Assembly (NCBI GenBank): GCA_022828105.1
Contig: JAJEJC010000008.1
Location: forward strand, 310,001 to 374,000
Source: Dehalococcoidia bacterium
Lineage (GTDB): Bacteria > Chloroflexota > Dehalococcoidia > Bin125
Direction of reading: 5' to 3'
DNA length: 64,000 bases
Position numbers and translations under genes: made by a program. The notes beneath the pieces were generated by a model. It made no database searches and was not told the DNA's origin. It saw nothing but the letters and a program-made list of their open reading frames with translations. Positions 38,838 to 41,891 of this stretch are shown here, piece by piece (within the stretch, counting starts at the first letter, position 1; every line of letters begins with the position of its first letter).

Positions 38838-39719
38838 CTAAGTTGCGGAGGCTTTGCGCTGTTGGGCGGCGGCCGAGCCTCGGCCGTCGCCGAAGCGGTT
38901 GTCGCGCCACTCGAGCGCCGCCTTGAGGCCCTTCTCGCGGGACATCTTGCCGAACTCCATGACCGCCGGCGCGAGGTGCGCGCGGGCGTCGTTCTCGGAG
39001 GCCAGACGCTGTAGCGTACGCGCGCCCATGATCTCGAGACCGAGGTTGACGATCCGCTTGTTGGCCGAGAGCAGCTCGTGGTCGATCATCGCCATCTTGT
39101 CGGCAAGTTCCTCAACCTCTTCGTCGAGTCGATCGGCGGGGACGGCGTCGTAGACCAGGCCGCGACGCGCCGCTTCGGCGCCGGAGATGCTGTCGCCGGT
39201 CAGCAGCATCCGCTTGGCGAACTGCGGACCGCCGTGGTAGAGCCACATGTGTGCCGGCGGCGCGCCCATCGCGCGGACCGGCGGGAAGCCGATCACCGCG
39301 TCCTCGGCGGCAATGATAATGTCGGAGAGCAGCACCAGGTCGGTCCCGCCGGCGAGGCAGTAGCCGTGCACCTTGCCGATCACCGGCTTGTGCATGTCGA
39401 AGATCGCCATCCGCGCGCGCTGCGCCTTCTCCATGCCCCAGGTGTCGTCGTCGAAGGTGACCCGGCCGCGGTAGACCTTGTCGTAGGTCTCCTGCGAGTC
39501 GCGGGTCGAGCCGGTCAGGTCGTAGCCGGCTGAGAAGGCGCGGCCCGCGCCGCTGAGAATCACGCAGTGGACGGCAGTGTCGTTGTCCGCCTCCCACATC
39601 GCTTGCGACAGCTCGTCCTGCAGCGCAATCGAGAGCGCGTTCAGCTTCTCCGGACGGTTCAGCGTCACATAGGCCTTGCGGTCCTCAACGCGGTAGAGGA
39701 TGTTCTCAAAGTCGGTCAT
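38838..39719 (-). CDS. Crotonase-family protein without the usual catalytic glutamates
   Basis: 293 aa. The oxyanion elements are kept: AGRAFSAGYDLTG and GYCLAGGTDLVLLSD. At the two positions where hydratases have glutamate, this protein has VIGFPPVRAMG (Pro) and AKRMLLTG (Arg), so simple enoyl-CoA hydration is unlikely. Hydrolase, isomerase, lyase or decarboxylase variants of the fold remain possible. A longer C-terminal tail ends in a Ser/Ala-rich segment. It is followed downstream by SDR pair 1, suggesting a shared acyl-CoA pathway. Confidence 0.85.
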   Translation of the reverse strand: MTDFENILYRVEDRKAYVTLNRPEKLNALSIALQDELSQAMWEADNDTAVHCVILSGAGRAFSAGYDLTGSTRDSQETYDKVYRGRVTFDDDTWGMEKAQRARMAIFDMHKPVIGKVHGYCLAGGTDLVLLSDIIIAAEDAVIGFPPVRAMGAPPAHMWLYHGGPQFAKRMLLTGDSISGAEAARRGLVYDAVPADRLDEEVEELADKMAMIDHELLSANKRIVNLGLEIMGARTLQRLASENDARAHLAPAVMEFGKMSREKGLKAALEWRDNRFGDGRGSAAAQQRKASAT

Positions 39720-39758
39720 CGGATGATCTCCTGGAACGTAGAGGTTGGCAGCGCCAGT

Positions 39759-40970
39759 CTAAGGGACGAGTCCGACACGGTGGCCGATCGTCGGCTGCGA
39801 GTCGAGCCGGATGATCAGGTCGAGCAGTCCCGACGGCTCCCAACTGCGGCGGCTGGGCGGCTGATCGTGAATCGGGACCAGGACGCCGGCGGCCTCGAGT
39901 TGGCGCAGACCCTGATCGACCGCCGGCAGGGAACGACCGCTGAACTCCGCCGCGTCGGCCCGATTCAGGACCGGGTAGGCAGGAAGCTGATCGAGGATGA
40001 TCCAGGCGGCCGCGTCCGAACGGGGATTCGTGTGGTCGCGCAACCGCTGCCGCCACTCAGCCGCCAGTTCGGCGACGGAGGTCCGATATCGCTCGGCCAA
40101 CGCCACGCTGCTGAGGACAGCCACGGCGAGTGTCCCGAGCCATTCTTCGAGGTCGTCTTCGCGATACGCATTCAGTCCTCGGATGTAGGCGTCCCTGGCG
40201 TGCGAGAGCGCCACGCTGACCGGCGGCGTCACGCGAGGCGCAAGCCCGCGCCGACGCAGGAGAATATGGATCAGCGCCCGACCGGTGCGCCCGTTGCCGT
40301 CGTCGAACGGGTGAATGGTCCCGAACTGCGCGTGCGCGACCGCAGCCTGAAACAGCGGCGGCGTCTGGTCGGAGTTGCAGAACTCGCACAGGTTCTCGAT
40401 CAGCGCCGGCACCTGCTCGGGCGGCGGAGGCACGAAATCGGCGCCGCATGGGGTGTAGTCGTTGCCGCCGATCCAGTTCTGCACCGTGCGCAGTTGCCCC
40501 GCCGTCTGCAGGTGGCCGCGCATGAGCACCTCGTGGATGTCGAGCAATTCGCGCCGACCCAGTCGTTCCACCGCCGCCGCGCGCCCGATCGCGACCTGCA
40601 TAGCCTCGACATTGCCGATCACTTCTCGCGCCCGCGAACCGACCCTGCGGCCGATCCGCCGCCTCGCCTCGGCGCGGGCGAGGGCGCGGGCATCGAGCTG
40701 GATGCCTTCGATTCTTGAGGACGCAACCGACTCGCTGCGCATCAGCAAGCGGGTGAGCGGTTCGAGCAGTCGGTCGTCCGGATACTGCAGCCGCTGCAGC
40801 GCGGCTTCCGCGTCGGCGAGGTCGGCGGCAAGCTCCACCGGCAGTCGGAAGGCGGCATCGTCGATTGCGTCGGGGATGAACGCGGCGTATTCGCACGGTC
40901 GGCGAAAGCGGCGCGGCGCCAGGCTGTCCGTCCTGGGCTGCCAGACTCGATGGACAAGTGCGCCGCGCAT
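39759..40970 (-). CDS. Fic-domain protein (class II) with C-terminal winged helix
   Basis: 403 aa from ATG 40970 (GGGAG upstream). The track's 33 extra residues would be encoded by the operator region. The active site HPFDDGNGRTGRAL is intact, so AMP-transfer is likely. The N-terminal inhibitory helix has SSRIEGIQ, matching the (S/T)xxxE(G/N) pattern of class II Fic proteins. The segment YPVLNRADAAEFSGRSLPAVDQGLRQLEAAGVLVPI near the C-terminus is a winged-helix module. The gene separates a crotonase gene from SDR pair 2. Two dyad sites upstream suggest it is regulated, perhaps by its own winged helix. Confidence 0.9.
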   Translation of the reverse strand: MRGALVHRVWQPRTDSLAPRRFRRPCEYAAFIPDAIDDAAFRLPVELAADLADAEAALQRLQYPDDRLLEPLTRLLMRSESVASSRIEGIQLDARALARAEARRRIGRRVGSRAREVIGNVEAMQVAIGRAAAVERLGRRELLDIHEVLMRGHLQTAGQLRTVQNWIGGNDYTPCGADFVPPPPEQVPALIENLCEFCNSDQTPPLFQAAVAHAQFGTIHPFDDGNGRTGRALIHILLRRRGLAPRVTPPVSVALSHARDAYIRGLNAYREDDLEEWLGTLAVAVLSSVALAERYRTSVAELAAEWRQRLRDHTNPRSDAAAWIILDQLPAYPVLNRADAAEFSGRSLPAVDQGLRQLEAAGVLVPIHDQPPSRRSWEPSGLLDLIIRLDSQPTIGHRVGLVP

Positions 40971-40998
40971 GGATCCGTTGTCTCCCGCTTCCTGAAGA

Positions 40999-41068
40999 CA
41001 AAGGTTAGCACCTATCCTTTGCTTTGGGCACCATGAACACAAAGGATATCCCCGTTCCTTTGTGTTCA
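40999..41068. promoter_or_regulatory. Two dyad operator-like sites upstream of fic
   Basis: Site 1 is CAAAGG-N11-CCTTTG at 40999-41021; site 2 is CAAAGG-N11-CCTTTG at 41040-41062. Site 2 extends to a perfect 13-bp inverted repeat, TGAACACAAAGGA and TCCTTTGTGTTCA, 9 bases apart (41034-41068). Centres are 41 bp apart, close to four helical turns, so both would face the same side of the DNA. They lie 30-100 bp upstream of the Fic start. Confidence 0.7.
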
Positions 41069-41096
41069 CAGAACAGCAGACAATGGATACGCGGCC

Positions 41097-41891
41097 CTAC
41101 AGGTGCTTGAGCACCCCGCCGTCGACCTGGATGGTCTGGCCGGTGATGTAGCCACTCACCTCGGACGCGAGGTAGACGGCCAGCGGCGCGGCATCCCAGG
41201 CCTCGCCGAAGCGGCGCATCGGGATGAAGCGCAAGAGCAAGTTCTCGTCGGCGCTCGACGGCCCACGACCGGGCGTCGAATCGGTCCAGCCGAGGACGAT
41301 CGCATTGACCGTCGTCCCTGACGGGGCCAGTTCCTGGCTCAGCGCCCGCACGAGCCCAATCACGCCCGACTGCGCCGCGCTGTAGATACTGAGGTTGGTC
41401 AGACCACGCACCGCCGACGCATCGAGCACGGCGACTAGCCGACCGGGCCTGCCGCGGAACTCACGGCTGGCGCTGCGGAAGGCGGCGTAGGTCCCGCCCA
41501 GGTTGGCCATCAGGACGCGCTGGATATCGGCGTCGAGCGTCTTGCGGATCGGCGCGGCGTGATAGAGCTGCGGCACGACCACGGCCGCGTCGAGACCGCC
41601 CAGCTCCTTGCTGATCTTGCGCGTGGCAACCTGGATGTTGGTCCCGTTGGACAGATCGACGGACTCGTTCGGCCCGCCGTCGGCCGCCTTTTTCAGGCGG
41701 AAGAGCGAGGTGCCATCGGTGTTGGCGCTGGTCACGCCGACCGACGCGCCGGCCTCGCGCAGACCCTGCACGATCGCCGTGGCGGCGGGCTTCTCCGCGC
41801 CATAGACGATCACGCGGCGTCCGCCCAGGTCGAAGCCCTGCAGCGCGCCGTCGCTGACCTCGGGCGGCGGGAGCGGATTCTGCAGGCTCAC
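41097..41891 (-). CDS. SDR-family subunit lacking catalytic Lys (pair 2, downstream)
   Basis: 264 aa, GTG start overlapping the upstream stop (GTGA). The SDR fold is recognisable by length and by the C-terminal YITGQTIQVDGG. The coenzyme loop is badly altered (IVYGAEKPAATAIV), NNAG is absent and the active site reads LSIYSAAQSGVIGLVRALSQEL, with Gln for Lys. It is therefore probably not catalytic alone. It mirrors the lysine-less gene of pair 1, again placed downstream of a fuller SDR. A BbsC-like structural partner is the best analogy. Confidence 0.85.
   Translation of the reverse strand: MSLQNPLPPPEVSDGALQGFDLGGRRVIVYGAEKPAATAIVQGLREAGASVGVTSANTDGTSLFRLKKAADGGPNESVDLSNGTNIQVATRKISKELGGLDAAVVVPQLYHAAPIRKTLDADIQRVLMANLGGTYAAFRSASREFRGRPGRLVAVLDASAVRGLTNLSIYSAAQSGVIGLVRALSQELAPSGTTVNAIVLGWTDSTPGRGPSSADENLLLRFIPMRRFGEAWDAAPLAVYLASEVSGYITGQTIQVDGGVLKHL

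What the first reader, a model, noticed from the sequence alone, without database searches (positions are those of the whole stretch)
40999..41068. Two identically spaced operator dyads upstream of the Fic gene
CAAAGG-N11-CCTTTG occurs twice, with centres 41 bp apart (about four turns). The second copy is part of a perfect 13-bp inverted repeat. Such symmetry in a GC-rich background is unlikely by chance. The Fic protein has a C-terminal winged helix, so it could bind here and repress itself, coupling AMPylation to transcription.
Basis: partly seen in the sequence, partly recalled or inferred. Interest (0 to 1): 0.68.

Follow-up and report, generated by a model that had tools for sequence, protein, structure and literature searches.

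The report
Self-operator array of a Fic enzyme
The paired repeats are part of a phased array of six binding half-sites in front of a Fic (AMP-transferring) enzyme gene, and comparison of more than 100 related genes across several bacterial phyla shows that the enzyme's own DNA-binding tail co-evolves with these sites, so it very likely switches off its own gene.

Summary
CAAAGG-N11-CCTTTG occurs twice in the window, nowhere else in the 2.74 Mb genome, and about 0.04 times by chance. It is larger than reported: six alternating half-sites with a 41-bp period fill the gap between the upstream gene and the fic ATG. Orthologous fic genes from Chloroflexota, Dormibacterota, Gemmatimonadota and Actinomycetota carry a dyad in the same register (65 of 72 orthologs with at least 45% identity score above the 99% null). 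The half-site letters differ between lineages and follow residues of the Fic winged helix. On a tree built without the winged helix, the three best of 5474 residue-base pairs are 350-k7, 347-k8 (start of recognition helix) and 374-k13 (wing), all past Bonferroni. Four sister genomes without fic lack the array, with the flanking genes intact. Fic therefore very probably binds its own promoter; repression is inferred from site position and from the proven case of CccR (Yersinia). The principle is known (Fic-HTH autorepression); the operator geometry, the phased array and the cross-phylum recognition code appear new. DNA binding has not been measured, and coupling of AMPylation to transcription is untested.

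The parts
39759..40970 (-). fic gene, 403 aa, ATG at 40970: Fic_N (residues 50-128), Fic (139-238), C-terminal winged helix (about 321-391); class II inhibitory motif S84xxxE88G89; catalytic motif H220PFDDGNGRTGR231
   Evidence: Pfam, invariant columns, AlphaFold2 model pLDDT 89
39798..40010 (-). winged-helix DNA-binding domain of Fic (residues 321-391); recognition helix 348-360, wing loop 367-375; residues 347-350 and 374 co-vary with operator bases
40972..40981 (-). half-site 6, ACAACGGATC on the - strand, ends 2 nt before the start codon
   Evidence: sequence
40998..41007 (+). half-site 5, ACAAAGGTTA
41039..41048 (+). half-site 3, ACAAAGGATA
41054..41063 (-). half-site 2, ACAAAGGAAC; with half-site 3 forms the second dyad (centre 41051), inside the perfect 13-bp inverted repeat 41034-41068
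41080..41089 (+). half-site 1, ACAATGGATA (the third 41-bp-spaced repeat copy)
40971..41096 (-). intergenic region between the upstream SDR gene (stop at 41097) and fic: the whole operator array and presumably the fic promoter
   Evidence: absent in fic-free sister genomes

Best explanation
The dyads are the operator of the fic gene itself. The Fic protein, a class II (self-inhibited) AMP-transferase with a C-terminal winged helix, binds the 33-bp convergent dyads (half-site ACAAAGGATA in this genus) as a dimer, one recognition helix and wing per half-site. Further dimers bind at 41-bp steps on one face of the DNA, filling the gap from the upstream gene to the ribosome-binding region. Occupancy blocks the fic promoter, so Fic holds its own level low. 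Shown: the sites, their conserved register, their co-inheritance with fic, and co-evolution with the winged helix. Inferred: direct binding, dimer assignment, cooperativity, and repression rather than activation.
For: 1) Chance excluded: 2 copies vs 0.04 expected; unique in the genome. 2) Same-register dyad upstream of orthologs: 113 of 154, and 65 of 72 with >=45% identity, exceed the 99% quantile of dinucleotide shuffles. 3) Phased array: 150 extra half-sites vs 31 expected in 93 orthologs, concentrated at +-31/32, +-49/50 and 72/73 bp from the dyad centre in alternating orientation (base profile). 4) Co-evolution: top mutual-information pairs of 5502 are 350-k7, 349-k8, 374-k13, 347-k8. On a tree without the winged helix, 350-k7 (p 1e-7, 10 co-changes), 347-k8 (2e-7) and 374-k13 (4e-7) are the best of 5474 and beat all 60 within-clade permutations (best 6e-7; third-best null 1.7e-5). 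5) These residues start the recognition helix (348-360) and lie in the wing loop. 6) fic+ congeners: 9 of 10 have the motif at fic and nowhere else; 4 fic- genomes have none, with the flanking genes adjoining. 7) Precedent: CccR represses its own gene via inverted repeats, shown by reporter, EMSA and footprint (PMC9755527).
Against: No binding or expression data. No sigma-70-like promoter was found in the region and the transcription start is unmapped, so repression is inferred. One fic+ congener (G014) lacks the dyad and keeps only a half-site at the ATG. With a symmetry-only dyad choice the co-change signal weakens (350-k7 p 2.7e-6 still first, 374-k13 fifth, 347-k8 not among the top six). 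On well-supported branches alone only 4 independent pairs were available for 350-k7, about 3 of 4 concordant and none opposite, too few for a significant sign test. One residue outside the winged helix, 292-k10, also passes Bonferroni on four changes.
Confidence: 0.85

Rival explanations
1. The array binds Fic, but as an activator or as a titration/allosteric platform rather than a repressor: DNA-bound Fic changes its enzymatic state (AMPylation or deAMPylation), with the operator acting like an antitoxin.
For: Coxiella CbFic2 has DNA-binding-induced (de)AMPylation activity (PMC10628234, title); the arrays hold more sites than simple repression needs (up to six or more half-sites).
Against: Sites run into the ribosome-binding region (half-site ends at -2), which fits repression; CccR is a repressor. 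No direct data here.
Confidence: 0.1
2. The dyads are operators of another regulator, for example of the neighbouring dehydrogenase genes, and fic merely lies next to them.
For: The array lies directly downstream of an SDR gene on the same strand.
Against: The sites follow fic into unrelated neighbourhoods in other phyla, vanish in four sister genomes that keep the SDR gene but lack fic, and co-vary with the Fic winged helix.
Confidence: 0.02
3. The inverted repeat is an RNA hairpin: a terminator of the upstream SDR transcript or an attenuator.
For: The - strand folds well (-51 kcal/mol, z -3.7).
Against: No terminator-like site with a T run. Half-sites repeat as letters, not only as complements, and extend as an alternating array; the letters track protein residues.
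Confidence: 0.03
4. A chance palindrome or repeat-type element without function.
For: None beyond its shortness.
Against:: too rare by chance, conserved and phased in orthologs.
Confidence: 0.005

Closest known systems
CccR (YPK_0951) of Yersinia pseudotuberculosis, probably PDB 7xux (Nat Commun 2022, PMC9755527)
   Same: Class II Fic with C-terminal HTH that binds inverted repeats in its own promoter; our model matches the fold of 7xux.
   Different: CccR uses one pair of 10-bp boxes with a 26-bp spacer (AGATAATCAT-N26-ATGATAATCT) and is a type VI effector. Here 10-bp half-sites are 5 bp apart in a 33-bp dyad, repeated at 41 bp, with unrelated letters; overall structural match is moderate (TM 0.55) and no secretion context was examined.
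Coxiella CbFic2 (CBU_0822), PDB 8cil (PMC10628234)
   Same: Class II Fic with a winged HTH that binds DNA.
   Different: No specific operator was identified for CbFic2 (random DNA used); studied for histone modification.
Mycobacterium marinum FIC-domain protein, PDB 7cb8 (CDP complex)
   Same: Closest solved structure: sequence E 5e-57, TM 0.86 over the whole chain.
   Different: No paper holding both its code and the word Fic was found in the library searched; its operator was not examined here.
SoFic (Shewanella SO_4266, PDB 3eqx; PADLOC model SoFic)
   Same: Same domain order; PADLOC SoFic model E 1e-71.
   Different: 20% identity in the fold match, far below the NCBIfam SoFic cut-off (53 vs 550 bits); DNA binding of SoFic not demonstrated as of PMC10628234.

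Membership tests
Class II Fic AMP-transferase | HxFx(D/E)GNGRxxR catalytic motif | tested here: met
   H220PFDDGNGRTGR231; H220, D224-R228 and R231 invariant in 21 orthologs; Pfam Fic 84.5 bits
Class II Fic AMP-transferase | (S/T)xxxE(G/N) inhibitory motif N-terminal to the Fic core | tested here: met
   S84-SRI-E88-G89; S84, E88 and G89 invariant
Class II Fic AMP-transferase | nucleotide transfer activity | not testable with these tools
   needs enzyme assay
Fic-HTH self-repressor (CccR type) | C-terminal DNA-binding winged helix | tested here: met
   AF2 model, helices 321-331, 337-344, 348-360 and wing strands 364-366/376-379
Fic-HTH self-repressor (CccR type) | inverted repeats in own promoter region | tested here: met
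   geometry differs from CccR
Fic-HTH self-repressor (CccR type) | binding of the protein to those repeats | tested here: inconclusive
   indirect only: co-evolution of recognition helix and wing with half-site bases
Fic-HTH self-repressor (CccR type) | repression of own gene | not testable with these tools
   needs reporter; inferred from position
Fic-HTH self-repressor (CccR type) | secretion by a type VI system (CccR itself) | not tested
   not examined
SoFic (NCBIfam equivalog NF046030) | score above curated cut-off | tested here: not met
   53.5 vs 550 bits
Intrinsic terminator | GC-rich hairpin followed by a T run | tested here: not met
   none found, though a hairpin can form

The most novel reading that the evidence does not exclude
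Multi-dimer assembly of Fic on its phased operator array sets the enzyme's activity as well as its expression: the operator DNA acts as an allosteric brake or switch on AMPylation, so DNA occupancy, nucleotide state and toxicity form one circuit in a protein family spread across phyla.
Probability: 0.15. Interest if true: 0.8.

Novelty: new variant of a known kind. Interest (0 to 1): 0.6.

Why it matters
According to PMC9755527, class II proteins make up about 80% of Fic proteins and almost nothing is known of how their activity is controlled. One case of self-repression was known. This work indicates that self-regulation through a winged helix is a conserved property of a whole Fic family across several phyla, and gives a readable protein-DNA code (350 Ala/T, Gln or Ser/C, Arg/G at base k7; 349 Pro, Val or Gln/T versus Ala or Ser/G or A at k8; 374 Asn/A versus Tyr or Arg/T at k13) that can be tested by swapping single residues and bases.

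Tried and rejected
Terminator/attenuator reading: hairpin folds but no T run, and the letters follow protein residues. Neighbour-gene operator: refuted by empty sites and by unrelated neighbourhoods. GTG start at 41069 (436-aa ORF reading through the array): rejected, homology starts at the ATG at 40970. Sigma-70 promoter scan: nothing found. Idea that k2-k7 (TANNNT) doubles as a -10 element: no conserved -35 in the profile, left open. Sign test on supported branches only: too few pairs. Seven plasmid homologs (36-40% identity) checked: L259 and L264, perhaps L261, show dyads near -45 but with an even centre, so spacing differs in that clade; the others show none clear.

Full report
Observation. 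CAAAGG-N11-CCTTTG is present at 40999-41021 and 41040-41062 exactly as described, centres 41 bp apart, the second inside a perfect 13-bp inverted repeat at 41034-41068. Shuffled windows give 0.04 such sites with one mismatch allowed. The genome of 2.74 Mb has no other exact copy and no other copy of the longer dyad with up to three mismatches.

Anatomy. The fic gene runs from 40970 to 39759 on the - strand (Fic_N and Fic domains). Its upstream neighbour, an SDR gene on the same strand, stops at 41097, so the sites fill a 126-bp gap. Scanning with the gene's own half-site shows six half-sites in alternating orientation, with reference points at -113, -90, -72, -49, -31 and -8 from the ATG: steps of 23 and 18 bp, period 41 bp. 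The last ends two bases before the start codon.

Orthologs. Fic relatives were collected from Chloroflexota, Dormibacterota, Gemmatimonadota and several Actinomycetota. Of 154 distinct genes with enough upstream DNA, 113 have a dyad above the 99% null quantile, and 65 of the 72 with at least 45% identity. The register is fixed: an odd centre, T and A at positions k2 and k3 from the centre, mostly C at k6 and T at k12. Other positions differ by lineage: ACAAAGGATA in the window's genus, TTAGTTCAGTTTA in many Gemmatimonadota, CTTATTCAAGGTTA or CTAAGCTAAGCTT in the more distant clades. The most common centre is -35. Additional half-sites sit at +-31/32, +-49/50 and 72/73 bp from the centre, 150 seen against 31 expected. 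The spacing inside the convergent dyad is constant, while the step to the next dyad varies by one base (31 or 32). I infer that the convergent dyad is the dimer site and the array is made of neighbouring dimers.

Who binds. In 108 orthologs with clear dyads the half-site letters were compared with every protein column. Mutual information ranked 350-k7, 349-k8, 374-k13 and 347-k8 first (z 13.5, 9.7, 7.7, 6.0). The contingency tables are sharp: Ala350 with T (77.5 of 80), Gln or Ser350 with C (10 of 10), Arg350 mostly with G; Pro, Val or Gln349 mostly with T at k8, Ala or Ser349 with G or A; Asn374 with A at k13, Tyr or Arg374 with T. With a tree made only from the enzymatic part of the protein, co-changes along branches again put 350-k7, 347-k8 and 374-k13 on top of 5474 pairs, all below the Bonferroni limit; 60 within-clade permutations never reached the best value or the third-best value. 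Caveats: choosing dyads by symmetry alone weakens this (350-k7 remains first), supported branches alone give too few independent pairs, and one residue outside the domain (292) also passes on four changes. Pairs of orthologs of 40-60% identity share 42% of half-site letters when none of residues 347-350 agree and 70% when all four do. The AlphaFold2 model (pLDDT 89) places 347-350 at the start of the recognition helix (348-360) and 374 in the wing. These are the places where a winged helix touches DNA (general knowledge of the fold), and nothing in the covariation analysis was told so.

Natural deletions. Of 15 genomes in the genus, 10 carry this fic. Nine of these have the dyad, each only at fic; the exception, G014, keeps a half-site at its ATG. 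Of the five without fic, four (G001, G002, G004, G007) have no dyad, and there the SDR gene is followed directly by the enoyl-CoA hydratase gene that lies beyond fic in the window. The fifth (G012) keeps a single relic dyad behind the SDR gene with other sequence following. So fic and its operator array behave as one cassette placed between two metabolic genes. The fic stop codon in the window lies in a TAGACTGGCG stretch that is shared with the empty sites.

Mechanism and known relatives. Fic-HTH self-repression has been proven once that I could find, for CccR of Yersinia pseudotuberculosis, by reporter, gel shift and footprint, with boxes AGATAATCAT-N26-ATGATAATCT (PMC9755527). Coxiella CbFic2 binds DNA through a winged HTH, without a known specific site (PMC10628234). 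The nearest solved structure to our protein is 7cb8 of Mycobacterium marinum. The protein has both the catalytic and the inhibitory motif of class II Fic enzymes. The best explanation is self-repression by cooperative binding to the array. Binding is supported by comparative evidence, repression by position and precedent, and coupling to AMPylation is open. PADLOC's SoFic model matches, so the gene may be listed as a defence candidate; I did not test that role, and the NCBIfam SoFic cut-off is not met.

Verdict. The kind of system is known in principle; the new parts are the phased array, the different geometry and a protein-DNA recognition code that holds across phyla.

Noticed in passing
L256 about 185-400 (G000:C7:168185-168400), upstream of a second Fic gene of the same genome: Four near-identical direct repeats (TTGGAATAGTCG, TTTGGAATAGTCG, TTGAATAGCGA, TTTGAATAGCGACT) precede this paralogous Fic gene, which may be a different kind of operator array.
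   Followed up: no
window 39700-41100 compared with L252-L255: fic plus operator is a cassette between an SDR gene and an enoyl-CoA hydratase gene; four sister genomes show the empty site. The fic stop codon overlaps a TAGACTGGCG stretch that may be part of the hydratase promoter.
   Followed up: partly
L251 (G012:C107:4944-4966): A lone dyad remains behind the SDR gene in a genome where fic is absent from that place: probably a relic operator.
   Followed up: partly
L033/L008 upstream of fic (G009:C51:386064-386183): In this congener the two dyads lie 97 bp apart instead of 41, with unrelated sequence between them.
   Followed up: no
Fic residue 292 (long helix 274-313), window 40095-40097: Residue 292 co-changes with operator base k10 on four branches; it is not in the winged helix and the reason is unknown.
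   Followed up: no
L259, L264 (actinobacterial plasmid Fic genes): More distant Fic genes (about 36% identity) have upstream dyads centred near -45 but with an even centre, suggesting a second operator spacing in that clade.
   Followed up: partly
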